Assembly (NCBI GenBank): GCA_003695725.1
Contig: RFHX01000065.1
Location: forward strand, 1-14,403
Reading direction: 5' to 3'
From: J061 sp003695725 [NCBI: Candidatus Schekmanbacteria bacterium]
GTDB taxonomy: Bacteria > Schekmanbacteria > GWA2-38-11
DNA: 14,403 bases
The notes under the pieces: model-generated
Database searches by the model: none
What the model was told of the DNA's origin: nothing
Seen by the model: the letters and a program-made list of their open reading frames with translations, nothing else
Position numbers and translations under genes: made by a program
In this document: in pieces, positions 48 through 11,464 of the stretch
Numbering within the stretch: the stretch's first letter is position 1
Layout: each line of letters opens with the position of its first letter

Positions 48-1205
48 CTATCCTTTTTTTAATATTACATAACCTACAATTCCGGAAATAAAAGAGGCAC
101 CTATTATTGCAAGCTTGTCTGTGTACTGAAAGATACTAGTGTCACTGAAGGCAAGAGTGGAAATGAATAAGCTCATAGTAAAGCCGATACCTGTAAATAC
201 TGAAACTCCATAAAACTGTCTCCAGTTGCTGTTATCCGGTAATTTTGCCAATTTGAGTTTTATTGTTATCCAACTAAAGCCAAATACCCCTATCTGTTTT
301 CCCAAAAATAGTCCTGCCAAAATTCCTAAAGGGACAGTTTCTAACATCTGATTGAAGGATATTTCTGTGAAATTAACTCCTGCATTGACAAAGGCAAATA
401 GCGGAAGTATCAGAAAGGCGACGACAAAATGCAGGCTCTGTTCAAGCTCTTTGAGCGGTGATGCCTGCTCTTGATTTTTATCTGTCACATTCAGCGGTAT
501 TGTAAATGCCAGCAGAACTCCCGCCAGTGTAGCATGGACACCTGATTTCAGGACACTTAACCACAATAGAATGCCTGCAATCAAATAAAAAGATTTTCTC
601 TTTATTCCAAAAGTATTGAATAAAATCAAGATTACTAAAAAACTCATTGCAAGGGCTAATGATAGCATAGATAAATTCGTTGTATAAAAAATGGCAATGA
701 TGACAATAGCGCCCAAATCATCGATAATAGCCAGTGCTGTCAGAAATACTTTAAGAGAAATTGGAACTCTTTTCCCCAAAAGAGAAAGAATTCCAAGAGC
801 AAATGCAATATCTGTTGCTGTTGGAATAGCCCATCCCTTAGTAGCTAACGGATTGTTTTGGTTTAATATCAGATAGATTAAAGCTGGAATCACCATTCCT
901 CCAATGGCAGCGATGCCCGGCAGAGCAGCTTGTCTTAAAGATGAGAGGTGTCCTTCCAATATTTCCCTTTTTACTTCAAGCCCAATCAATAAGAAGAAAA
1001 CAGCCATTAATCCATCGTTAACCCAATGATGCAGAGATTTATTCAAATGCAATGCTCCTATTCCTATTTCTATGGGAAGATGTAAAAATGATTCATAGTA
1101 GTACAATAAGAATGAATTGCTGAAGATGAGAGCAACCACAGTTGCAAACATTAATAAAATACCACTTGATGATTCCTTTTCTATGAATTCTTCAATAATT
1201 TTCAT
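48..1205 (-). CDS. nhaA: Na+/H+ antiporter NhaA
   Basis: Inner-membrane antiporter that exchanges cytoplasmic Na+ (or Li+) for external protons and so supports sodium and alkaline-pH homeostasis. The 385-residue product is close to E. coli NhaA in length and is hydrophobic throughout. The family's key residues are visible. TATDIAFALG carries D132 (E. coli D133). The ion-binding pair D162-D163 lies in AIIDDLGA. K303 lies in LGKQIG (E. coli K300). The pH-sensor region LEVKRE holds E77, R80 and E81, H224 lies in SGVHATLAG, and GIGFTMSLFI is near the C-terminus. The gene appears intact. The ATG at 1205 has a GAGG ribosome binding site five bases upstream. It follows the DUF362 gene after 131 bases and is probably transcribed separately. 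Nothing links it functionally to the carbohydrate genes. The family call is firm; the transport properties are inferred from the conserved residues. Confidence 0.97.
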   Translation of the reverse strand: MKIIEEFIEKESSSGILLMFATVVALIFSNSFLLYYYESFLHLPIEIGIGALHLNKSLHHWVNDGLMAVFFLLIGLEVKREILEGHLSSLRQAALPGIAAIGGMVIPALIYLILNQNNPLATKGWAIPTATDIAFALGILSLLGKRVPISLKVFLTALAIIDDLGAIVIIAIFYTTNLSMLSLALAMSFLVILILFNTFGIKRKSFYLIAGILLWLSVLKSGVHATLAGVLLAFTIPLNVTDKNQEQASPLKELEQSLHFVVAFLILPLFAFVNAGVNFTEISFNQMLETVPLGILAGLFLGKQIGVFGFSWITIKLKLAKLPDNSNWRQFYGVSVFTGIGFTMSLFISTLAFSDTSIFQYTDKLAIIGASFISGIVGYVILKKG

Positions 1206-1336: not shown

Positions 1337-2410
1337 TTAGATTATTTCAGCATTCGTTGTGCCGAGTCCCATCTTCTCTGCTGACCAGATGTGACCAGCC
1401 GCTTCATGGGAAACTTCAGGAATTTTCATTTCCCTTCTTTTTTCATTTATTATTCCCATTCCTACGATGTCTGCCGCAACCCTGTCTGTACTCATTACTA
1501 TTTTGTGGCTTACTCCCTGCGGGGGTGAAGATGGAGCTCCATTGAAAACACCTGCAAGGGCATCGATTACTACTAATTTTGTTTTCTTCATTAGATGTTC
1601 GCTTGCATTGACTTCGGCAATTTGCGGGTTGCAGTGATGACGGTGCATCTTGTCAAATGCTTCGGGCATATCAGGAGGGTATAGTCCCACAGATGCCTGC
1701 TCGGCAATACTTATGGTGCCATACATATTTTTCAAAGAAAGAGTTACTCCCGTAACTCCCGGGGAATCAGCAGATTTTAGGACAGGAACATTGATCAAGT
1801 AGTCAATATGTTGAGAAAGAATTTTGCTGTGTGTTCGCTCGAAGTTTTCAGATTTGATGAATACCTTTGCTTCCGGGTCAAGACCAATATTTTCAGCTCC
1901 TTTACCTATGAATGTGCCATAACATTTATATCCTTCTTTCCCTTTGTTTATCTTATATCCTGATTTCTCCAAAAATCCTTCCACATTGTCCCAAATGAGA
2001 ATATTTTCCTTTTTTATACCTGCTTCAGCCATACTGTCTGCTATGGAATAGACTACTTCAGGGTGAGAAGGAATTCGCCAATTAACACAATTCGGCTTTA
2101 TACCAATGACTTCATTCTCTTTTAAATTTGGAAAAATTTTGACCCAAGCTTCGGATATGCTTTTAGTATTTGTTATTCTCTTTATTGCTTCATCAACCAT
2201 TGCCCTTGCCAGTTTTGCATCGATTGAAAAATTATCAGTAATTGCTTTTTTGTCCTCGACTACTGCAACTATGGATTTGGCGACAGATTTTTTCCCTTCA
2301 TCAGCAAATAAAAAAGTCGGATTGATTCCCGTTATTGCAGCTGCAGCGACGGTTGATTTTAAAAAGGACCTTCTTGTTAATAGATGACTGTATGGGCATC
2401 TTTTCTTCAT
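1337..2410 (-). CDS. Tat-exported DUF362 protein
   Basis: A 357-residue protein of the DUF362 family, whose biochemical role is unknown. The N-terminus has a near-ideal twin-arginine signal: T12-R-R-S-F-L-K18, then an Ala-rich hydrophobic stretch (about 19-36) ending near LFADE. The folded protein is therefore expected outside the cytoplasmic membrane, perhaps with a cofactor. The mature part shows DUF362-like segments: VIGIKPNCVNW (about 95-110), ILIWDNVEGF, VPVLKSADSPGVTGVTLSLKN in the middle, and a C-terminal ADIVGMGIINEKR stretch. It lacks the CxxCxxC ferredoxin-like module that some family members carry. The ATG at 2410 has an AGGAG ribosome binding site six bases upstream. It follows the second GH130 gene by 89 bases containing a terminator-like hairpin, so membership of the carbohydrate operon is doubtful. 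Family and export are well supported; function is not assigned. Confidence 0.88.
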   Translation of the reverse strand: MKKRCPYSHLLTRRSFLKSTVAAAAITGINPTFLFADEGKKSVAKSIVAVVEDKKAITDNFSIDAKLARAMVDEAIKRITNTKSISEAWVKIFPNLKENEVIGIKPNCVNWRIPSHPEVVYSIADSMAEAGIKKENILIWDNVEGFLEKSGYKINKGKEGYKCYGTFIGKGAENIGLDPEAKVFIKSENFERTHSKILSQHIDYLINVPVLKSADSPGVTGVTLSLKNMYGTISIAEQASVGLYPPDMPEAFDKMHRHHCNPQIAEVNASEHLMKKTKLVVIDALAGVFNGAPSSPPQGVSHKIVMSTDRVAADIVGMGIINEKRREMKIPEVSHEAAGHIWSAEKMGLGTTNAEII

Positions 2411-2499: not shown

Positions 2500-3441
2500 T
2501 CAAAGTGGATTCCTCTTTTTTTTAAGGCATAATTCAACAAGTTCTTCAACTATTGCCGTGCCAACACACATAACGGTGTCAGCACCGCCCCAATAAAGCT
2601 TCAATGTACCGTCATCTTCGGGCACTGCACCGCAAGAAAAAACAACATTGTGAACATAGCCAGTAATTTCCCACGAATCTTCCGGTTGTAGAATCCAATC
2701 ATCGGCAACTCCAATAATTTTACCGGGATTTTCAAGCTCATGAAGAGCAACTCCTAAGCGATATATTGAACCGTCCATAGTTTTGAATACGCCATGAAAT
2801 ATATTTAACCATCCCTTGTCAGTCCTTATAGGTGTTGCACCGGGACCTACTTTCATTTCGTCCCAATGATAATTCTGCGGCTTGATGATGATTTCAGAAT
2901 TGCCCCAGTGAATGAGGTCAGGCGAAGAAGAAATCCAAATCGACCATGGCGATATTTCTGAATGTGGTCTATCAAGACGGTAATAGAGTCCGTCAATTTT
3001 TTCAGGAAATAAAACAACATTCCTGTAATCGCATTCTGTTATAAAAGCAATTCTTTCAATATTGTTGAAATCTTCTGTTTTGGCTAATCCGATTCTTACG
3101 CCATGTCTTGAATAGGCGCTGTATGTAATGTAATAAATTCCCTCGATTTCACAAAGGCGAGGGTCTTCCACACCGTATTCTTCATAAACTGAAAAAGGTT
3201 CTTCTTTCGAAGGAGTAAGAAAGGGTTTGTCATCGGCTTGAAAATTGAATCCATCTTCACTTTCTGCCTTGCCAATTATTGAGCGCCCATTTCTCAGATG
3301 AGAGCGGAAAAGCATTATATATTTGCCATCTTTTTTGATGACAGCGGCATTATGGACTGTTTCGACAGGATAGGGAATATCCTTCTTTGTTAAAATAGGA
3401 TTCCCTTCATACCTTTTTACTAAATCTTTTTTTACTTTCAT
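2500..3441 (-). CDS. GH130 family beta-mannoside phosphorylase-like enzyme (copy 2)
   Basis: Five-bladed beta-propeller enzyme of family GH130, whose members phosphorolyse (or in some subfamilies hydrolyse) beta-mannosides, typically releasing mannose 1-phosphate. The 313-residue length is typical of the shorter subfamilies. Visible hallmarks are YGVEDPRL with the presumed general acid D93, LFPEK (144-148), DRP with R158, VGPGATPI (198-205), FHG with H216, YRLGVAL (227-233), and the closing GGADTVM (285-291). Retention of R158 and H216, at positions of the kind reported to bind phosphate in the family, favours phosphorylase over hydrolase; this is inference. There is no signal peptide, so it should be cytoplasmic. 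The ATG lies three bases after the preceding glycosyltransferase stop and has only a weak Shine-Dalgarno, consistent with translational coupling. It diverges from the other copy around 44-60. Linkage and substrate are not determinable. Confidence 0.9.
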   Translation of the reverse strand: MKVKKDLVKRYEGNPILTKKDIPYPVETVHNAAVIKKDGKYIMLFRSHLRNGRSIIGKAESEDGFNFQADDKPFLTPSKEEPFSVYEEYGVEDPRLCEIEGIYYITYSAYSRHGVRIGLAKTEDFNNIERIAFITECDYRNVVLFPEKIDGLYYRLDRPHSEISPWSIWISSSPDLIHWGNSEIIIKPQNYHWDEMKVGPGATPIRTDKGWLNIFHGVFKTMDGSIYRLGVALHELENPGKIIGVADDWILQPEDSWEITGYVHNVVFSCGAVPEDDGTLKLYWGGADTVMCVGTAIVEELVELCLKKKRNPL

Positions 3442-3444
3442 TTT

Positions 3445-4488
3445 CTATATTCGTTTTACTTTTGTAGATTTTGCCTTCTCGATGGAGAGGATTTCTTCAT
3501 AAACTTTGATATAATCATTTACCATTCTTTCAACTGAGAAATTCTTTTCAACCCACCTGCGGCATTCAATGCGCGAGATATTTTTAATTTCATCAACTTT
3601 TTTTATTGCATCATCTATGCTTTCAACTAAAAAACCTGTTTTTTCCTTATCGATAACTTCAGGCATACTGCCTCTATTCTTTGCGATAACAGGTGTGCCG
3701 CATGCCATAGATTCTATTACAGAAAGTCCAAAGGGCTCGTCGAAGTTGATTGGGTGCAAAAGTGCATAAGCACCGCCCAACAATTCATCTCTTTTCTTTG
3801 GTCCTGCGCTTCCCACATAAACGATTTGTTCTCCGTCTATGAAAGGAGCAACCTTTTCATCGAAATATTTTTGGTCCTGAATGATTCCGGCAATAATCAA
3901 TTTTCTTTTTGTCTTTTTTGCAATTTCTATGCATTCATAAGTTCCTTTCTCATTATGAATCCTGCCAAAAAAGAGAAGATAGTCGCCTCCTTTCTCATTG
4001 AAAGTGAATTGATTCAAATCGATGCCATGATGTACTGTTGCAATATAATCAAGCTCGTCCGCTCTGTCCGAATTGCTGATGGAAACATAATATACTTTAC
4101 CATTGTACTTCTTATATACAGGCAAAATTTTTGGAGACGAGAAACCATGAATTGTTGTTACAACAGGTGTGGATGTCATTGCTGTATATGTCAAAGGAAG
4201 GAAATCAAAGTGATTATGGATTATATCGAATTCATCTCCTCTTTCAAAACATTCTGAGATGTGAAGACATTCCCATACTTTTGGCAAGAGAGTTTTGTCA
4301 TCCTCATATCCATGAGGAGCAACGCTTACAAGTTTAGCTGATGTAATTGAATCTGCTGTGGCAAATAGGGTTACATCAATTCCCTTTTTTACAAGACCTT
4401 CTGTAATTAATGAGACAACATTCTCCCATGGACCATAGTGGCGCGGTGGTGTCCTCCATGCTATTGGAGAAAGCATTGCGATTCGCAT
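3445..4488 (-). CDS. GT4 family glycosyltransferase
   Basis: GT-B fold retaining glycosyltransferase, 347 residues, presumably using a nucleotide-sugar donor in the cytoplasm. The N-terminal acceptor-side domain opens with MRIAMLSPIAWRTPPRHYGP, whose pattern (PP followed by YG, then a helix and VTLFATADS) matches a GT4 subgroup I know from other bacteria. The C-terminal donor domain starts near FFGRIHNEKG (173-182), carrying R176 and K181. The GT4 E-x7-E motif is intact as E251 and E259 in DEPFGLSVIESMACG, followed by TPVIAKNRGSMPEVI. There are no membrane segments or signal peptide. It sits between the two GH130 genes: six bases after the upstream one and three bases before the downstream one. 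GGGAGG, about 12 bases before the ATG and inside the upstream gene's end, may serve as its ribosome binding site. Donor and acceptor are unknown; the neighbours suggest mannose chemistry. Confidence 0.92.
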   Translation of the reverse strand: MRIAMLSPIAWRTPPRHYGPWENVVSLITEGLVKKGIDVTLFATADSITSAKLVSVAPHGYEDDKTLLPKVWECLHISECFERGDEFDIIHNHFDFLPLTYTAMTSTPVVTTIHGFSSPKILPVYKKYNGKVYYVSISNSDRADELDYIATVHHGIDLNQFTFNEKGGDYLLFFGRIHNEKGTYECIEIAKKTKRKLIIAGIIQDQKYFDEKVAPFIDGEQIVYVGSAGPKKRDELLGGAYALLHPINFDEPFGLSVIESMACGTPVIAKNRGSMPEVIDKEKTGFLVESIDDAIKKVDEIKNISRIECRRWVEKNFSVERMVNDYIKVYEEILSIEKAKSTKVKRI

Positions 4489-4494
4489 TTTTTT

Positions 4495-5439
4495 CTACTG
4501 CCTCCCTTCATATTTTTTTACCCATTGCAATAGCTCTGAAAGTTTTGCAGTTGCCATTGAAATGCTTTTGTCTGCGCAGCCATAGTATAACCTAACTTCA
4601 TTATCTTCTATAATCCATCCACAGGGGAACACGACTTTATCTACATCTCCTATCATTTCATATTCTTCTTCAGGTGAAAAAATCCATTCATCACCTCTTG
4701 AAATTACTTTGCAAGGATCGTCAAGGTCAAGAAGTGCCAACCCCAATCTATAGATGCATCCACTTACAGTCCTTTTTACGCCATGATAAAGTATGAGCCA
4801 TCCTTCATCGGTTTTAAGCGGTGGTGTTGAGGCTCCGATTTTTTCCGCATCCCACCAACTGCCTTCTCTTGCTTTGAGCAATAATTTGTGTTTTCCCCAG
4901 TGTATGAGGTCGTCTGAGAATGCAATCCATATATGCGCTCCTGTGCCGGGAAATGTTGAAACAGGCCTGTGAAGCATTGCCCATTGCCCATTTACCTTTT
5001 CAGGAAAAATTGCGGCATCTTTGTTTTCAGGGGGTAGTACAATGCCAATCCGTTCAAAAGTTATAAAATCATCTGTAAGAGCAATTGATACCAATGGCCC
5101 TGCTTTAGAAAATGATGTATATGCAACAGCCCATTTTCTAATTTCAGAAAGATAGCTTATTCTTGGGTCTTCTATTCCCCAAAATTCTTCAGGATGACGG
5201 TCAGGTTGTGGCATTAGTGTTGGCTTTTCATCGCATTTCCAATTTGTTATTCCATCACTGCTTACAGCTTTAGTCAAGTGTGATATTCCTCTCCTATCTT
5301 CTACTCTCATTAGAAGAAGCGTCGTATCATTAAATTTTGTAGCACCTGTATTGAATAGAGAGTTGGCTTTATAAGGCAGGTCTTTGACATTTAGCAAAGG
5401 ATTCCTTGAGTATCTTGTAAACAATTCTTTCTTTTCCAT
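4495..5439 (-). CDS. GH130 family beta-mannoside phosphorylase-like enzyme (copy 1)
   Basis: Second GH130 enzyme, 314 residues, co-linear with its neighbour's paralogue (FPEK at 145-148 and R158 fall at the same positions in both). Hallmarks are MRVEDRRGISHL (44-55), WGIEDPR with the presumed general acid D91, HRP with R158, KIGASTPPLKT (200-210), LYHG with H219, YRLGLAL (230-236), VVFPCG and YYGCADKS with D290. The MRVEDRRGIS segment is closer to the usual phosphorylase pattern than the equivalent stretch in the other copy, so the two probably differ in substrate length or linkage. No signal peptide is present, implying a cytoplasmic enzyme. The ATG at 5439 follows an AAAGG three bases upstream and an AAGGT about ten bases upstream. 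It starts 84 bases after the preceding glycosyltransferase and leads a tightly spaced three-gene block. The family call is firm; phosphorylase versus hydrolase is inferred. Confidence 0.92.
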   Translation of the reverse strand: MEKKELFTRYSRNPLLNVKDLPYKANSLFNTGATKFNDTTLLLMRVEDRRGISHLTKAVSSDGITNWKCDEKPTLMPQPDRHPEEFWGIEDPRISYLSEIRKWAVAYTSFSKAGPLVSIALTDDFITFERIGIVLPPENKDAAIFPEKVNGQWAMLHRPVSTFPGTGAHIWIAFSDDLIHWGKHKLLLKAREGSWWDAEKIGASTPPLKTDEGWLILYHGVKRTVSGCIYRLGLALLDLDDPCKVISRGDEWIFSPEEEYEMIGDVDKVVFPCGWIIEDNEVRLYYGCADKSISMATAKLSELLQWVKKYEGRQ

Positions 5440-5523
5440 AATCCTTTTACCTTATGTAGAAAACATTTAGAGATTCAGGAAACGAGAAAAATTATCTATG
5501 AGAACAGCAAATCTAAGTTTATC

Positions 5524-6750
5524 TTAAAACTCCAGTCCAAGGTCGATTTTCTTGCCGAGTTTTTTGGCTTCATTTGCCAAAGCATATGCCTCATTGTATT
5601 GTTCAGCTACTTTTTCCCAACACACCACTTCTTCAAGGTATTTTTTTAGATTATTGCCAAGCTCGAGACGAAGGTTTTCATCGAGTGCCAATCTAATGAC
5701 TTTTTTCTTAAGCATTTCTTTTGTTGTGAAAAGAAGACCTCCTTCACTTTCTAATGTCTGAGCTGTCAAACCTTCAAGAGGTGCTGTCGTAATGTATGGT
5801 TTATTGAGTGCTATGATTCTTGCGAGAGTGCCTGATTGGGTTTCATCGACTGAAGGCAGGACGATAAAATCGCATGTTGCCATCATCTTATAATAGATTT
5901 CACCTCGAGGTATGAATTCATGATAATGAGCTATGCCTTTTGTTTCCAAGAATTGAACTTCACTTTTCCATTCTTCATAGTCACCTTTATGATTTGGATC
6001 GCGCATAGCACCTGCGGCAAGAAGCGACCATTCAATACCGCTTGCCTTTTTAATTTCTTCATGAATTTCTTCCCACATTGAAAGCAGAATGTCCCAGCGT
6101 TTATTGGTTTGAATCCAGCCAATCATTCCAACAATATGCTGTGTGAGTGTTGTTTTATCGAATCCCAGCTCTTTTCTGATGCCTTCAATTTCATGAAGTC
6201 CCCAACGTTTATCTGAACGCGCCCCGTGAGGGACTACCATTATATTCCTTGGTGTATCCCATCCTCTTCCGCTAAAATTCCAGTCAAGCCGCCATTTCTG
6301 GTAATGGCATTTAAATAAGACAATGTCGCTGAGTCGGCACATTTCATATATGAAATTTGCTTCAGGATCCCTCAATCTTCCATGAACAGTGTGTGGCTCT
6401 ACCACTGTTGGATAGTTCTCTATTGCTTCAAGTAATGTTAAGAACCCTTTGTTTTCATCGCCAATTCCTCTTTCATCTATATATTCATACAATCCATATT
6501 CATGTTCGAGGTGTACAGCATAAGGATCAAGTTCTTCAATTTTATCTGCAACTGGCTTCCACCAATCCCTTGAGCTTATGTCTATAAGCGGGAAAACTCC
6601 TTTTCCGCGTCCATCTGTATGGCTAATTACAAAAACCTCCCTATCTGGGTTCGCTTTTTCTATGAATTCTCTTGCTTCTTCTACGAAAGTGGCAATGCCG
6701 CACAATCTTGGTGGATATGAACTGATTAAAACTATGGGTTTTTTATTCAT
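5524..6750 (-). CDS. GT-B glycosyltransferase related to the N-terminal half of the adjacent fusion protein
   Basis: Soluble GT-B type glycosyltransferase of 408 residues with no membrane segment. It opens with VLISSYPPRLCGIATF, matching NYLPRRCGIATF in the neighbouring fusion protein, and shares the HEYG motif (83-86; LEHEYGLY here, LQHEYGIF there). The linker region reads MVVPHGAR (171-178), and the donor domain follows from about 203. The usual GT4 E-x7-E motif is altered: the aligned segment is E303-TQSGTLA-R311, so the second Glu is Arg. SGTLA (306-310) is shared with the fusion protein. The ATG at 6750 has GAGGT five bases upstream. The gene begins 19 bases after the fusion gene's stop, so they are very likely co-transcribed. 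A paralogous origin for the pair is inferred from the shared motifs. Donor, acceptor and whether the altered motif changes activity are unknown. Confidence 0.85.
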   Translation of the reverse strand: MNKKPIVLISSYPPRLCGIATFVEEAREFIEKANPDREVFVISHTDGRGKGVFPLIDISSRDWWKPVADKIEELDPYAVHLEHEYGLYEYIDERGIGDENKGFLTLLEAIENYPTVVEPHTVHGRLRDPEANFIYEMCRLSDIVLFKCHYQKWRLDWNFSGRGWDTPRNIMVVPHGARSDKRWGLHEIEGIRKELGFDKTTLTQHIVGMIGWIQTNKRWDILLSMWEEIHEEIKKASGIEWSLLAAGAMRDPNHKGDYEEWKSEVQFLETKGIAHYHEFIPRGEIYYKMMATCDFIVLPSVDETQSGTLARIIALNKPYITTAPLEGLTAQTLESEGGLLFTTKEMLKKKVIRLALDENLRLELGNNLKKYLEEVVCWEKVAEQYNEAYALANEAKKLGKKIDLGLEF

Positions 6751-6769
6751 TTTTTACCTCTAAACAATT

Positions 6770-9088
6770 TTATCCTGCCTGCGTTAAAACTTCCACCTTC
6801 TCATCAGCTTTGCTTTTAATTTGAAGATTGAGCATCTTTCTCATATTGAAAAGTGATATAAGCCAGCAAAGTGTTGATTCGGCCCCTTGGTTTTGGTTGA
6901 TACCCGAAGCCATCAACCCATCACAACAGCCGCCTGTAATATAATCGTAAAGAGGTGCATTTGCATCGTTTCTTCCGAGAAACCATTCTATGCAAAGCCG
7001 CGCAAAACTTATCCATTTTTCTTCTCTTGTTACATTATAGGCTTCTCGACATGCTTCTATCATTGAAAGAGCTTCAATTGGTTGTTGGTCAAAACGGGCT
7101 TTTACACTGTTTTTTTCAAACCATCCATTGTTTCCTACAGGAGCAAAATATTTATTCACATTGTCTGTTTGGTGTTTCATTAGCCATTCTAAAATTTTTA
7201 ATCCAATTTCCATCATTTCATTGTCAGGAATCCATTGCCCTGCCATAATGAGCGCTTGAGCAACCTTTCCGCTTCCCCAAGTGACTTTATCGGAAACCCA
7301 CTGCCAGTCATCGGAAGAATGAATATGGTAGAGTTCTTTCAATTTGCTTGCCAGAAGTTCTCTTGCCCGTCTCGCCTCGCTGTCTCCTCCAAATCGTTTG
7401 AGGTATTCTTGAATTCCGATTATGGAAAAGGATATAGGATGGTAATATTTGAATTCAAGAGCGGCAGAAAGAGATTTTTTAAAGAGTGTCAAGGCATATC
7501 CTGCTATGTTTTCAAATTTAGATAAACCAACAGTTGCACCCAATGCCCAAATTGCCCTTGCGTAGCTGTCGTCAGAACCTTTCTCATCGAGCCATTTTCG
7601 TTCATAATTCATAAAATTTCGAAAACGGCCGTTTTTTTCATTAAAGGCATAGTGCAGGAAACTAAGGTATTTGCACATCAATTCAATTAAGAGGTCTTCT
7701 TCAGCAACAAATTCTTGAGCCATCAATACTGCAATCAGTGCGCGTGCATTATCATCGGTGCAGTAGCCATGAAATCTATCGGGGATAATGTATTTTGCAT
7801 GCTGAAGAATTCCCACATCGTCAGTTAATCTCAGAAGATGATCCAACTTTGGCTGTGGAAGGTCAAAAAGTGTTTTTTCGAGAGTTTTGGTTTTGAACAC
7901 AGGTTTTGCTTTTCCTTCCATTTCACTTCTGACTTCTTCAAAGACATCGAGATATCTCCGTGATACCTCCTTCCAAATCATATTACGGCAATAGATATAG
8001 GCACGTTTTCTCATAGAATGTCTTTCAACTTCATTTGAAAATAAATTTATTACATTTTCTGCCAGCGCTTTTGAATCCCTGAATGAAACAATCCTGCCTC
8101 TTCCGTCGGCAAGCATTTCTTCCGCATACCAATAAGGTGTCGAAATGACTGCCTTACCAGCTCCTAACGAATAGGCAAGTGTGCCTGATACTATCTGCTG
8201 TTTATTGAGATAGGGAGTAACATAAATATCTGCCGCTCCCAAAAATTCACACAGCTCTTTCAGTTCAACGAAGCGATTATGAAAAATCAAATGATTTTCA
8301 ACACCAAGTTCTCTTGCTTTCCTTTGGAGAAATATTCTATAGGATTCTCCATGTTCTTTCTTTACATGGGGATGTGTAGCGCCAAGGATGATATAGACAC
8401 AATCAGGAAATCGTTTGACGATTTCAGGCATAGCATCAATCATATATTCAATTCCCTTATTGGGAGAGAGAAGACCGAAAGTGAGGATAACTCTTCTCCC
8501 TTCGACACCGAACTGGTCCTTGTAATAATTGGGGTCAACAAAGGGAACATCAGGAATACCATGATGAATCATAACTATTTTCTCATATGGAATGCCAAAT
8601 ACTTTTTTAAGAATCTCTTTGGCATGTTCACTCATAACAACCAATCGGTTTGATAATTTTGCAATGCTTATCAAAACTTCTTTCTGCTCGTCCGATGGTT
8701 GTTCGAGGACAGTGTGAAGTGTTGTAACAACGGGCATCCTGAGATTCGAAAGAAGGTTGATAATATTGCTTCCACAATCACCTCCAAAGATTCCGTATTC
8801 GTGCTGAAGGTTGACAATGTCAACATTATTCATATTTAAAAAATCAGAAGCAAGAGTATAGTCTATAAGCTCTCTTTGCCGCACCTCAAATCGCACTTCA
8901 GAAGGATAGGGATAACCTTCAGGAATGTCGTTCATGGCAATTGCCCAGAAAGAGGTATCAGGAGCTTCTAATGATAACCCCCTAAGCAAGTCGGAAGTAA
9001 ATGTTGCAATACCACATCGGCGAGGGAGATAGTTCCCTATCAAAGCAACAGACTTGAGAGATGACTTATAAAATCCTCTTTCAGACAT
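6770..9088 (-). CDS. Bifunctional-looking protein: GT-B glycosyltransferase fused to an (alpha/alpha)-toroid-like domain
   Basis: A 772-residue two-part protein. Residues about 10-390 are a GT-B glycosyltransferase: NYLPRRCGIATF near the start, LQHEYG (94-99), MIHHGIPD linker, FGLLSPNKG (204-212), and SGTLA at 301-305. The E-x7-E pair is replaced by Q298 and Y306. Residues about 415-755 are helical and resemble (alpha/alpha)6-toroid glycosidase-like folds, with acidic motifs CTDDNAR (443-449), GSDDSYAR (504-511), RFDQQP (665-670) and NQNQGAES (731-738). I cannot assign this part to a numbered GH family. The start is the ATG at 9088, because AGGAGGG lies five bases upstream. A TTG at 9148 would add 20 residues without a good ribosome binding site. 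It heads the carbohydrate cluster, 108 bases after the Mo-hydroxylase gene. A combined synthesis and trimming role is inference; the toroid may instead bind or hydrolyse a glycan. Confidence 0.85.
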   Translation of the reverse strand: MSERGFYKSSLKSVALIGNYLPRRCGIATFTSDLLRGLSLEAPDTSFWAIAMNDIPEGYPYPSEVRFEVRQRELIDYTLASDFLNMNNVDIVNLQHEYGIFGGDCGSNIINLLSNLRMPVVTTLHTVLEQPSDEQKEVLISIAKLSNRLVVMSEHAKEILKKVFGIPYEKIVMIHHGIPDVPFVDPNYYKDQFGVEGRRVILTFGLLSPNKGIEYMIDAMPEIVKRFPDCVYIILGATHPHVKKEHGESYRIFLQRKARELGVENHLIFHNRFVELKELCEFLGAADIYVTPYLNKQQIVSGTLAYSLGAGKAVISTPYWYAEEMLADGRGRIVSFRDSKALAENVINLFSNEVERHSMRKRAYIYCRNMIWKEVSRRYLDVFEEVRSEMEGKAKPVFKTKTLEKTLFDLPQPKLDHLLRLTDDVGILQHAKYIIPDRFHGYCTDDNARALIAVLMAQEFVAEEDLLIELMCKYLSFLHYAFNEKNGRFRNFMNYERKWLDEKGSDDSYARAIWALGATVGLSKFENIAGYALTLFKKSLSAALEFKYYHPISFSIIGIQEYLKRFGGDSEARRARELLASKLKELYHIHSSDDWQWVSDKVTWGSGKVAQALIMAGQWIPDNEMMEIGLKILEWLMKHQTDNVNKYFAPVGNNGWFEKNSVKARFDQQPIEALSMIEACREAYNVTREEKWISFARLCIEWFLGRNDANAPLYDYITGGCCDGLMASGINQNQGAESTLCWLISLFNMRKMLNLQIKSKADEKVEVLTQAG

Positions 9089-9196: not shown

Positions 9197-11464
9197 TTAT
9201 GTCATCTTTTTTCTAATTGCTTCAAGAACCTTTTCAGGAGTAATTGGAAGGCTTTTTATCGGATATCCTATGGCATTGTTGACTGCGTTTGCTATTGCCT
9301 GTGCCACGCAAACGATTGGTCCTTCTCCAACTTCCTTTGCACCAAAGGGTCCATAGGGGTCATTTGTTTCAACAATAATGTGCTCGACTTCAGGGATTTC
9401 AAATGGACGAGGAAGTTTATAATTTAAAAGGGAAGGATTCAAGATTTGTCCATAGTCAAACTTGCACTCTTCAAAAAGGGTTTGACTCATTCCGCTGAAT
9501 ACCTGTCCGTCAATCTGTCCTTCTATTGCCAATGGATTTAATGCTCTGCCAACATCATGTGCGGCCGTTACTCTCAACACTTTTACTTGTCCTGTTTCGG
9601 GATTGACTTCAACTTCAGCTACCTGAGCCCCAAAAGAATAGGCGAGGCAGTTATTACCTTCAAAAGTAATCGGGTCAACTGATTGTGTTGGAGGATTGAA
9701 AAAACCTCGCCCCATTACATATCTGCCTTCTGATGAGTGCAAGGTATCAAATACGATTTCCTCAAAAGGCAGTGCTTTTTCTTCTTCTCCTCTTGGATAA
9801 ACCTTCCTGTTGCGAAATACAATGGATGAAGCTTTCACATTGAAATTTTTTGCCGCTGTTTTTAAAAGTTGCCTTTTTGCATCGAGCGCTGCATTTTTTA
9901 CAGCATTTCCTGTTGTAAGCGTCCCACGCTGTGAGAAGGCCCCAATGTCAAATGGTGTTACATCGCTATCACCTGAAACTACGGTAATATCTTCTATTTT
10001 TATTCCAAGTGTTTCCGCCGCAATCATTGCAAGGACAGTGTGAGAGCCCTGTCCCATATCAGGAAGTCCTGTAAATAGGGAAACTTTGCCGTCTTCTCCG
10101 ATTTTTATGAATGCAGCCGAAGTATCATGGTCGAAAACACCTTTTCCGCCGGAATTCATAACACCACAGCCAATGCCAATTCCTCTAAATGGAGGCAGTT
10201 TTCCTCTTTTTCTTTTCCAACTGGATTTTTTCAAGACTTTCTTTATACATTCTTTCAAGCCACAGCTTGCATAATAGTTTTTGCTAAGGGTCCTGTATCC
10301 CTTTGAAACAGCATTTTTAAGACGAATTTCTGCAGGGTCGATGCCAATGTCTTCTGCCACAAGGTCAAGATGAGTGCCAAATGCAAAGCGTGCCGGCACA
10401 AATCCTCCTCCATGATGAAAAAGGTAGGGGATATTGTTTGTATAAACAATCTTGGCATTGTATTTAAAAGCGTTCATCTTATAGAGCATTTGAAGTCCCA
10501 GTCCCACGAATCTTGCCATTGTGAACTGAGTTTCAATATATGCACCGCAGTCGTAGAGGGCTTCTGCTTCAACGGCTTTTATAGTACCGTCCTTCATAAC
10601 AGCAGTCTTGAACCTGAATTTGTTTTTTCCTCCGCTTCTGCAAACTAAAAACTCCTCTTCCGGAGTGCAATGAATCTTTACAGGTTTCGATGATTTCTTG
10701 GATAAAAGGGCCGCGAGATAATGATGGGCGCGAGCAACTCCTCGTCCTGAGAAAGCGCCACCTGTATTCAGATTCAACACACGGACATCGCTTTCATTGA
10801 TTCCAAGTTTTTCAGACATTCTTTTCTGTATCAGCGGTGCAGTTTGGACAGGAAGCCAGATTTGTAGTTTCCCGCTGTGAGTAAAATCTGCAATAACTGA
10901 ATGATGTTCGGCAAAGGCATTATGTGTTGCTTCTGTGGTGTATTCATCCTCTCTTATGTAGTCGGCTTCGGCAAATTCTTTTTCACAGTCGTCAAAGTTT
11001 ATTTTTACCTCATCAGCAATGTTGTCATCCATAAAGTTATGAATGGGGGGCGCTCCTTTCCTGAGTGCTTCATCAATGGAAAGGATTGGCATTTGCGGTT
11101 CAAATTCCACTTTTATTAGCTCCAATGCTTCGATTGCTGTATCTTCATCAACTGCAGCAACTGCGGCTATTTCTTCTCCAAAGTGTTTGACTTCATCTTT
11201 GCAAAGCAGATTTTGTTCGGGACCTAACATTATTCCTGCTGTGTCTTCATAAGTTACAATTGCCTTTACTCCCTTCACTTTGGCAGCTTTACTGGTATCT
11301 ATGTTGAGAATTTTGGCTTTTGGATAAGGGCTTCTCAATATTTTCCCATAGAGCATTCCTGCAGGAGAATAATCATCTGTAAATTTGGCTTTGCCAGTTA
11401 CTTTTTGGGCGGCATCAAGGCGAGGTTGTCTCTTCCCTATATTTATGAAATCGTTTTTTTTCAT
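9197..11464 (-). CDS. Molybdopterin-binding large subunit of a xanthine dehydrogenase/CoxL-type hydroxylase
   Basis: Catalytic large subunit (755 residues) of the xanthine oxidase family, which hydroxylates aldehydes, N-heterocycles or related substrates at a molybdopterin cofactor. The N-terminal hammerhead domain is visible (RLDAAQKVTGKAKFTDDY at 15-32, then GEEIAAVAAV). Cofactor-binding motifs follow: GGAFSGRG (235-242) in place of the usual GGGFGGK, GQGSHT (471-476), a QRGTLTTGNA segment (512-521), and AKEVGEGP near the end with the presumed catalytic Glu E714. The segment FVPARFAFGTHLD (355-367), which lies near the active site in relatives, is also non-standard. No small [2Fe-2S] or FAD subunit gene is adjacent on either side. 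The product has no signal peptide. The ATG at 11464 has no clear Shine-Dalgarno, but an in-frame stop at 11492-11494 excludes an earlier ATG. Substrate unknown. Confidence 0.93.
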   Translation of the reverse strand: MKKNDFINIGKRQPRLDAAQKVTGKAKFTDDYSPAGMLYGKILRSPYPKAKILNIDTSKAAKVKGVKAIVTYEDTAGIMLGPEQNLLCKDEVKHFGEEIAAVAAVDEDTAIEALELIKVEFEPQMPILSIDEALRKGAPPIHNFMDDNIADEVKINFDDCEKEFAEADYIREDEYTTEATHNAFAEHHSVIADFTHSGKLQIWLPVQTAPLIQKRMSEKLGINESDVRVLNLNTGGAFSGRGVARAHHYLAALLSKKSSKPVKIHCTPEEEFLVCRSGGKNKFRFKTAVMKDGTIKAVEAEALYDCGAYIETQFTMARFVGLGLQMLYKMNAFKYNAKIVYTNNIPYLFHHGGGFVPARFAFGTHLDLVAEDIGIDPAEIRLKNAVSKGYRTLSKNYYASCGLKECIKKVLKKSSWKRKRGKLPPFRGIGIGCGVMNSGGKGVFDHDTSAAFIKIGEDGKVSLFTGLPDMGQGSHTVLAMIAAETLGIKIEDITVVSGDSDVTPFDIGAFSQRGTLTTGNAVKNAALDAKRQLLKTAAKNFNVKASSIVFRNRKVYPRGEEEKALPFEEIVFDTLHSSEGRYVMGRGFFNPPTQSVDPITFEGNNCLAYSFGAQVAEVEVNPETGQVKVLRVTAAHDVGRALNPLAIEGQIDGQVFSGMSQTLFEECKFDYGQILNPSLLNYKLPRPFEIPEVEHIIVETNDPYGPFGAKEVGEGPIVCVAQAIANAVNNAIGYPIKSLPITPEKVLEAIRKKMT

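What the first reader, a model, noticed from the sequence alone, without database searches (positions are those of the whole stretch)
2500..9088. Five-gene cluster interleaving two GH130 enzymes with three glycosyltransferases: a candidate intracellular mannan-like make-and-recycle system
Seen: GT-toroid, GT, GH130, GT4, GH130, all on one strand with gaps of 19, 84, 6 and 3 bases. None has a signal peptide or membrane helix, and the window holds no sugar transporter, outer-membrane binding protein or secreted glycanase. Known: GH130 includes reversible beta-mannoside phosphorylases acting on beta-1,2 or beta-1,4 links; tandem GH130 pairs acting on beta-1,2-mannans occur in Thermoanaerobacter; and the GT108 family, related to GH130, builds and turns over the beta-1,2-mannan reserve (mannogen) of Leishmania. 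Inference: these genes may build a cytoplasmic mannose-containing glycan or solute and release it again as mannose 1-phosphate. Three glycosyltransferases imply more than one linkage or a primer step.
Basis: partly seen in the sequence, partly recalled or inferred. Interest (0 to 1): 0.68.

Follow-up and report, generated by a model that had tools for sequence, protein, structure and literature searches.

The report
Mobile bacterial mannose-sugar gene module
A five-gene cluster of sugar-joining and sugar-splitting enzymes belongs to a widespread, patchily distributed bacterial module that is often found beside genes for activated mannose and probably builds and recycles a mannose-containing sugar inside the cell; the sugar itself is not known.

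Summary
In detail: five minus-strand genes at 9088-2500 (GT4+toroid, GT4b, GH130a, GT4c, GH130b) with gaps of 19, 84, 6 and 3 bases and no membrane helix. The exact order recurs in one other genome (G137); all five types recur in G267 and G209. The real units are smaller: GT4-toroid plus a GH130, and GT4c plus GH130b (15 of 17 loci); GT4b lies within 5 kb of GT4-toroid in 9 of 9 genomes. Both GH130s keep phosphorylase-type residues. GH130a has the likely beta-1,2 Lys; GH130b has Arg-Asn there, like beta-1,4 enzymes. GT4c is 47% identical to glucosylsucrose synthase but lacks its sucrose-facing Trp. The toroid is an (alpha/alpha)6 domain with no Pfam or NCBIfam family. In 11 of 18 annotated plasmid loci the module lies with mannose-6-P isomerase, GDP-mannose pyrophosphorylase and/or phosphomannomutase genes, twice all three; no importer family recurs. 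This favours an endogenous cytoplasmic mannose-fed glycan or solute. Product, linkages, donors and GH130 direction are unproven; a beta-mannan built by GT4s themselves is unlikely, since GT4s are retaining. New variant of a known kind.

The parts
6770..9088 (-). GT4tor: GT4 domain (about residues 1-390) fused to a C-terminal (alpha/alpha)6 toroid domain
   Evidence: Pfam GT domains at residues 76-364; homologues fused or as two adjacent genes in many genomes
6773..7903 (-). Toroid domain of GT4tor; undescribed family, probable glycan-processing enzyme
   Evidence: AF2 pLDDT 90.5; best structural match YPO2471 Z 39.2; no Pfam or NCBIfam family reaches its cut-off; 28 invariant columns in 18 sequences
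5524..6750 (-). GT4b: second GT4-type glycosyltransferase, optional part of the module
   Evidence: Pfam; GT-B fold, pLDDT 91.2; within 5 kb of GT4tor in 9 of 9 other genomes
4495..5439 (-). GH130a: probable beta-1,2-mannoside phosphorylase
   Evidence: PF04041 197 bits; catalytic Asp, Arg/Lys/His set, Glu before Asp; Lys-Asp motif in 17 of 17 relatives
3445..4488 (-). GT4c: GT4 of the glucosylsucrose-synthase kind, acceptor unknown
   Evidence: 47% identical to TeGSS over 334 residues; Y18, R179, K184, E256 kept in 19 of 19, Trp10 and Arg117 in none of 19
2500..3441 (-). GH130b: phosphorylase-type GH130 with Arg-Asn in place of the beta-1,2 Lys-Asp; partner of GT4c
   Evidence: PF04041 184.8 bits; Arg-Asn in 16 of 16 relatives; GT4c neighbour in 15 of 17 fetched loci

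Best explanation
A horizontally spreading cytoplasmic mannoside module. GDP-mannose is made in the cell (the own genome has a ManC-type gene elsewhere; relatives carry supply genes beside the module) and is probably a donor for at least one GT4. The GT4s assemble a soluble alpha-linked primer, oligosaccharide or small solute. GH130a reversibly adds or removes beta-1,2-mannose with mannose 1-phosphate, the same pool that feeds GDP-mannose. GH130b does the same on another linkage or acceptor, one made together with GT4c. The toroid probably trims the glycan or frees primers. The role is likely a reserve or a stress-protective sugar. Shown here: gene content, order, modularity, active-site residues, folds, supply-gene neighbours. 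Inferred: donors, linkages, product, direction, role.
For: Mannose-activation genes beside the module in 11 of 18 annotated plasmid loci and in L022, L027, L028, L044, L050 (PGM/PMM and hexapeptide NTP-transferase families do not fix the sugar). All three of isomerase, mutase and guanylyltransferase around GT4tor-GH130 in two Sphingobium plasmids. ManC-type gene in the own genome. No importer, SusC/D, flippase or polymerase family with two members in any batch of 171 neighbour ORFs. GH130 residues. Chaperone genes near the module in 7 of 18, mostly one Sphingomonadaceae island.
Against: No product or activity known. GT4c's best characterised relative uses UDP-glucose (PMC9909042), so a glucoside is possible. 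The best PDB match of both GH130s is TM1225, listed as beta-1,4, and in the tree the GH130a clade joins the beta-1,4 enzymes with weak support (0.497). The long GH130s that replace GH130a in the alphaproteobacterial loci have Gln at the phosphate-type Lys (10 of 10). G015 and G302 have GT4tor-GT4b beside an outer membrane 'alginate export' protein and no GH130 match. The own genome has one SBP_bac_8 gene on another contig and a glycogen-synthase-type gene, so a mannose reserve would not be its only possible store.
Confidence: 0.5

Rival explanations
1. Surface-glycan synthesis: the GT4s build part of an LPS, capsule or exopolysaccharide, and the GH130s and toroid edit or recycle fragments.
For: GT4tor-GT4b beside an Alginate_exp outer membrane protein in G015 and G302, one family; PMT_2 glycosyltransferase-type genes upstream in L017 and L018; GT4b's fold matches include WaaG of LPS synthesis.
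Against: No flippase, polymerase or initiating-transferase family had two members in any neighbour batch (lists cut); the proteins lack membrane segments; autonomous two- to four-gene cassettes on plasmids carry supply genes but no export genes.
Confidence: 0.17
2. Salvage: the GH130s phosphorolyse imported beta-mannosides to mannose 1-phosphate, which feeds GDP-mannose and the GT4s, as proposed for Thermoanaerobacter (PMC4264767).
For: The Thermoanaerobacter cluster pairs two GH130s with a mannose-1-P guanylyltransferase and a GT4; a ManC-type gene follows GT4c in L044; the own genome has one SBP_bac_8 gene, elsewhere; the Deinococcus plasmid has a cellulase-family hydrolase about 5 kb away.
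Against: That cluster has ABC importers and a GH5 gene; here no importer family recurs, and isomerase plus mutase genes, which make mannose 1-phosphate from fructose 6-phosphate, would be needless for salvage.
Confidence: 0.1
3. The GH130s act mainly as synthases that build beta-mannose links in vivo, from mannose 1-phosphate or even GDP-mannose as GT108 does, and the toroid is the degrading enzyme.
For: They sit among mannose-activation genes; long GH130s have Gln at a phosphate-type Lys (10 of 10); a solved relative is titled mannoside synthase; GT108 enzymes with the same fold have both activities (PMC8950772); the toroid has a hydrolase-like fold and invariant acidic residues.
Against: GH130a and GH130b keep the basic residues in 17 of 17 and 16 of 16 (Lys and Arg both counted); use of a nucleotide sugar by a GH130 is not known to me; no GT108 match at E<=0.001.
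Confidence: 0.13

Closest known systems
Thermoanaerobacter GDP-mannose cluster with Teth514_1788/1789 (PMC4264767, passages)
   Same: Two GH130s, a GT4 and a mannose-1-P guanylyltransferase in one cluster; GH130s without signal peptides
   Different: Has five ABC transporter genes and a GH5; no toroid is named; the GH130s fall outside the GH130a and GH130b clades
Leishmania mannogen with GT108 enzymes (PMC8950772, passages)
   Same: Proposed cytosolic make-and-recycle use of mannose; GH130 and GT108 share the fold
   Different: No GT108 match at E<=0.001; retaining GT4s and a toroid are present here; product unknown
Mycobacterial methylmannose polysaccharide with ManT and MmpH (PMC9883506, passages)
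   Same: GDP-mannose-type GT-B enzyme plus an (alpha/alpha)-type hydrolase that makes new primers; ManT is among GT4b's fold matches and MmpH among the toroid's (Z 25.3)
   Different: No methyltransferase in the module genes; GH130s present; low sequence similarity
Glucosylsucrose synthase TeGSS (PMC9909042, two sections and passages)
   Same: GT4c is 47% identical and keeps the named donor-phosphate residues
   Different: Sucrose-facing Trp10 lost in 19 of 19; no PF00862 domain in the own genome
YPO2471, PDB 7tem
   Same: Homologue of the toroid: Z 39.2, profile E 1.9e-18
   Different: Titled putative exported protein, function not given; a 427-residue chain, shorter than a GT4-toroid fusion

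Membership tests
GH130 | Sequence match above the Pfam GH130 cut-off | tested here: met
   197 and 184.8 bits against 26
GH130 | Catalytic Asp and -1 subsite Asn/Asp | tested here: met
   Present in both; residues named in PMC4264767 and PMC4599007
GH130 | Phosphorylase-type basic residues | tested here: met
   Arg, Lys and His in both; that these three are the phosphate ligands is recalled, the paper passages seen say only three basic residues
GH130 beta-1,2 phosphorylases | Lys equivalent to BT3780 Lys199 | tested here: inconclusive
   GH130a has Lys140 and GH130b Arg at the likelier of two candidate columns; BT3780 itself was not in the alignment
GH130 beta-1,2 mannobiose phosphorylase (NCBIfam equivalogs) | Score above the curated cut-off | tested here: not met
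   Best 260.9 and 242.9 bits against 550 for NF050092; 217.8 and 203.7 against 450 for NF052550
GT108 | Sequence similarity to GT108 members | tested here: not met
   No GT108 structure among the PDB sequence hits at E<=0.001; a GT108 profile was not run
GT108 / mannogen system | beta-1,2-mannan product and dual transferase-phosphorylase activity | not testable with these tools
   Needs assays
Glucosylsucrose synthase | Donor-phosphate residues Tyr18, Arg179, Lys184, Glu256 | tested here: met
   19 of 19 GT4c sequences
Glucosylsucrose synthase | Sucrose-facing Trp10 | tested here: not met
   0 of 19
Thermoanaerobacter-type salvage cluster | ABC importer and GH5 gene in the cluster | tested here: not met
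   Absent from the window and not recurrent in neighbours
AGE / cellobiose 2-epimerase family (toroid) | Shared (alpha/alpha)6 fold | tested here: met
   Z about 31 to RmCE
AGE / cellobiose 2-epimerase family (toroid) | Catalytic His residues (recalled) | tested here: inconclusive
   No His invariant in 18 sequences, H35 nearly so; not superposed on an epimerase
MmpH-like hydrolase (toroid) | Catalytic Asp47/Asp50 and Glu262 equivalents | tested here: inconclusive
   Invariant D50, D51 and E342 are similarly laid out but were not superposed

The most novel reading that the evidence does not exclude
A mobile bacterial pathway makes and recycles a mixed alpha/beta-mannoside in the cytoplasm as a reserve or stress protectant. 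It combines retaining GT4s, two GH130 phosphorylases of different linkage and an undescribed (alpha/alpha)6 enzyme family fused to a GT4, and it can travel on plasmids with its own GDP-mannose supply and beside chaperone genes: a bacterial counterpart of mannogen built from other parts.
Probability: 0.33. Interest if true: 0.8.

Novelty: new variant of a known kind. Interest (0 to 1): 0.62.

Why it matters
GH130 enzymes are mostly described as catabolic enzymes for foreign mannosides (PMC8950772, passages). Here they sit in a module without a recurrent importer that, in several organisms, carries genes leading to GDP-mannose. If the product is cytosolic, a mannose-based reserve or protectant has been overlooked in many bacteria. 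The toroid is in 67 of 386 sampled genomes, 7 of them by weak matches, yet has no Pfam or NCBIfam family, and the GT4c-GH130b pair predicts a testable, possibly new, linkage.

Tried and rejected
Sucrose-based reading of GT4c: not favoured, because no PF00862 domain was found in the own genome (97.84% complete) and Trp10 is gone in 19 of 19.

A fixed five-gene unit: rejected. Among the loci examined the exact order was seen only in G137; modules vary.

Simple vertical inheritance: not favoured. The same-family genome G001 has no match to GT4b, toroid or GH130b at the thresholds used, while G002 of the same order has a toroid beside a GH130. GT4b is in 1 of 7 and 1 of 5 genomes of the orders of G137 and G267, several of them incomplete.

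Promoter and terminator scan: 26 promoter-like sites against 19.1 expected and 10 terminator-like against 5.4; no minus-strand promoter-like site in the 84-base gap. Not used.

Toroid fold: epimerases, GH9 and GH76 enzymes share it, so the fold does not tell the reaction. GH125 and GH15 entries were not among the 50 rows shown, which excludes nothing.

Seven on GH130 with glycosyltransferases, synthase, mannogen, GDP-mannose, Cry7Aa naming, stress or plasmid, and storage or solute listed no paper whose title or abstract start describes this module; lists were capped at 8 to 20 rows and the library is open access only. Papers seen: PMC9909042 outline with abstract, passages and two sections; PMC4599007 passages and one section; PMC4264767, PMC8950772 and PMC9883506 passages; PMC8195603 passages, a false lead.

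Rows dropped: 188 neighbour ORFs of 36 loci were listed; 171 were scanned (60+59+52). One long ORF of L126, most of the later ORFs of L129 and some of L134-L139 were left out, and some L135-L139 frames were replaced by the annotated ones. G252 was not fetched; its distances come from coordinates. Of 28 plasmid records 19 were read.

One search repeated with another threshold and added nothing.
Full report
Observation. In reading order I call them GT4tor (9088-6770), GT4b (6750-5524), GH130a (5439-4495), GT4c (4488-3445) and GH130b (3441-2500). Pfam gives GH130 for two and GT4-type domains for three. None has a strongly hydrophobic segment, while NhaA and the histidine kinase of the window do. 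The other genes of the window have no sugar-transport or secreted-glycanase function.

Conservation and modularity. GT4b orthologues (53-73% identity) are in 9 of the 385 other genomes searched; GT4tor, whole or as two adjacent genes, lies within 5 kb in 9 of 9. The exact order is in G137 (L048, 61-70% identity per protein). G267 (L049) has GT4tor-GH130a-GT4c-GH130b-GT4b. G209 (L045) has all five types, with GH130b on the other strand, a weaker GT4c (41%) and a further GH130. G385 (L044) has GT4tor-GT4b-GH130a-GT4c and then a guanylyltransferase-type gene.

GH130b relatives at 60% identity or more are in 18 other genomes of the 385. GT4c is the neighbour in 15 of the 17 that I fetched: 13 at 56-70% identity, two at 38-41%. 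The misses are G258, and G094, where the contig begins at GH130b. In 14 of 18 a toroid is on the same contig within 10 kb; two have it on another contig, and G060 and G258 have none. Of 59 other genomes with a toroid match below 1e-50, 28 have a GH130 match within 5 kb, against a rough 0.7% per locus if unlinked (my assumption of two GH130s in 3 Mb). The 28 is probably a lower bound, since the GH130b query can miss long GH130s. So the units are GT4tor+GH130 and GT4c+GH130b, with GT4b optional. Distribution is patchy, which suggests horizontal spread.

Named carriers. A tblastn of GT4tor finds 28 plasmid records; I read 19. A GH130 is in the fetched stretch in 19 of 19. Ilyobacter polytropus pILYOP02 carries GT4c-GH130b-long GH130-GT4tor and Deinococcus sp. 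KNUC1210 carries GT4tor-GT4c-GH130a. In L153 and L154 the GH130 is some kilobases off on the other strand; in L152 and L154 GT4tor is in pieces. Of 18 annotated records, 11 have a mannose-6-P isomerase, mannose-1-P guanylyltransferase and/or phosphomannomutase in the stretch; Sphingobium amiense and S. yanoikuyae have all three around GT4tor-GH130. Chaperone genes are in 7 of 18, all Sphingomonadaceae and largely one island. An AGE family epimerase follows GH130 in two Rhizobium plasmids. A HAD-IIB hydrolase is in 4 of 18, which leaves open a phosphorylated intermediate. These records are related and not independent.

Neighbours. In 171 neighbour ORFs of 36 loci (the window itself not included) NTP_transferase has 3 and 2 members in two batches; L050, in the third batch, has one too, just outside the 25 families shown there. 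PMT_2 has 2 members. No sugar-binding-protein, sugar-permease, SusC/D, flippase or polymerase family had two members in any batch; ABC_tran had two in one, and SSF one. Each list shows 25 of 69 to 81 families, so singletons are partly unseen. PGM/PMM-family genes lie beside the module in L027 and L050 and nucleotidyltransferases in L022, L028, L044 and L050; only the ManC-type one in L028 scores above the cut-offs of its mannose-specific domains. The own genome has a ManC-type gene, one SBP_bac_8 gene and a glycogen-synthase-type gene, each on another contig.

GH130a and GH130b. Both keep the catalytic Asp, -1 subsite residues and an Arg-Lys-His set, with Glu and not Tyr before the Asp, which separates them from the beta-1,4 subfamilies. 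PMC4599007 names Lys199 of BT3780 as the beta-1,2 determinant. Two columns are Lys in four beta-1,2 enzymes and not in three beta-1,4 enzymes; by its spacing from the Asp the first (GH130a Lys140) is likelier. There GH130a relatives have Lys-Asp in 17 of 17, GH130b relatives Arg-Asn in 16 of 16, long GH130s Lys-Gly in 10 of 10, the last with Gln at the phosphate-type Lys. GH130b's closest relatives in the tree have Lys-Asp, so Arg-Asn looks derived. Against a clean beta-1,2 reading: the best PDB hit of both is TM1225, listed as beta-1,4; the GH130a clade joins the beta-1,4 enzymes with support 0.497; the beta-1,2 NCBIfam models are the best hits but far below their cut-offs. I read GH130a as probably beta-1,2 and GH130b as acting on another linkage or acceptor (inference).

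GT4c, GT4b, toroid. GT4c is 47% identical to TeGSS, a UDP-glucose:sucrose alpha-1,2-glucosyltransferase. It keeps Tyr18, Arg179, Lys184 and Glu256 in 19 of 19 and Trp10 and Arg117 in 0 of 19. With no PF00862 domain in the own genome, another acceptor is likely; the donor is open. GT4b's fold matches include MshA, PimB' with GDP-mannose, WaaG and ManT, which does not settle its donor. The toroid (pLDDT 90.5) is nearest to YPO2471 (Z 39.2, rmsd 2.6 over 335 residues), then 2-epimerases (about 31), GH9 and GH76 enzymes; MmpH has Z 25.3. A profile search of the PDB finds YPO2471 alone. The best Pfam matches are below their cut-offs and NCBIfam has none. MmpH uses Asp47/Asp50 and Glu262; the toroid has invariant Asp50-Asp51 and Glu342, a similar layout that I did not superpose. 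I read it as a glycan-processing enzyme, more likely hydrolase than epimerase (inference).

Mechanism. Most likely GDP-mannose made in the cell feeds GT4s that build a cytosolic alpha-linked primer or solute; the GH130s exchange beta-mannose with the mannose 1-phosphate pool; the toroid trims or makes primers. Chaperone neighbours hint at a stress role. What stands against it is listed under Best explanation.

Verdict. Its beta-mannan and mannogen reading is one option among several, and the fixed five-gene unit does not hold.

Noticed in passing
window 1337-2410, minus strand: DUF362 protein with a twin-arginine-like start (RRSFLK), directly downstream of GH130b on the same strand.
   Followed up: no
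window 48-1205, minus strand: NhaA sodium/proton antiporter downstream of the cluster; a link to salt stress is only a thought.
   Followed up: no
window 9197-11464, minus strand; L145:9801-12128: Molybdopterin oxidoreductase large subunit upstream of GT4tor; a xanthine-dehydrogenase-type gene also adjoins GT4tor-GH130 in Novosphingobium resinovorum (26% identity), probably coincidence.
   Followed up: partly
L021:8667-10094 and L046:7848-9281: Alginate_exp outer membrane protein directly behind GT4tor-GT4b in two genomes of one family (G015, G302).
   Followed up: partly
L023:4475-7387: Three GH130 genes in a row beside a GT4; the first has lost the catalytic Asp and other active-site residues in the alignment.
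   Followed up: no
L051, L052, L053, L057: A different GT4-GH130 pair (GH130 46-47% to GH130b, Lys-Asp type) recurs in genomes without a strong toroid match beside it.
   Followed up: no
L152 and L154: GT4tor is broken into pieces in Neorhizobium galegae and Sphingomonas paeninsulae plasmids.
   Followed up: no
L153, L154, L135, L140: HAD-IIB family hydrolase near the module; this family holds sugar-phosphate phosphatases of solute pathways (recalled).
   Followed up: no
L143 and L148: AGE family epimerase/isomerase directly behind GT4tor-GH130 in two Rhizobium plasmids.
   Followed up: no
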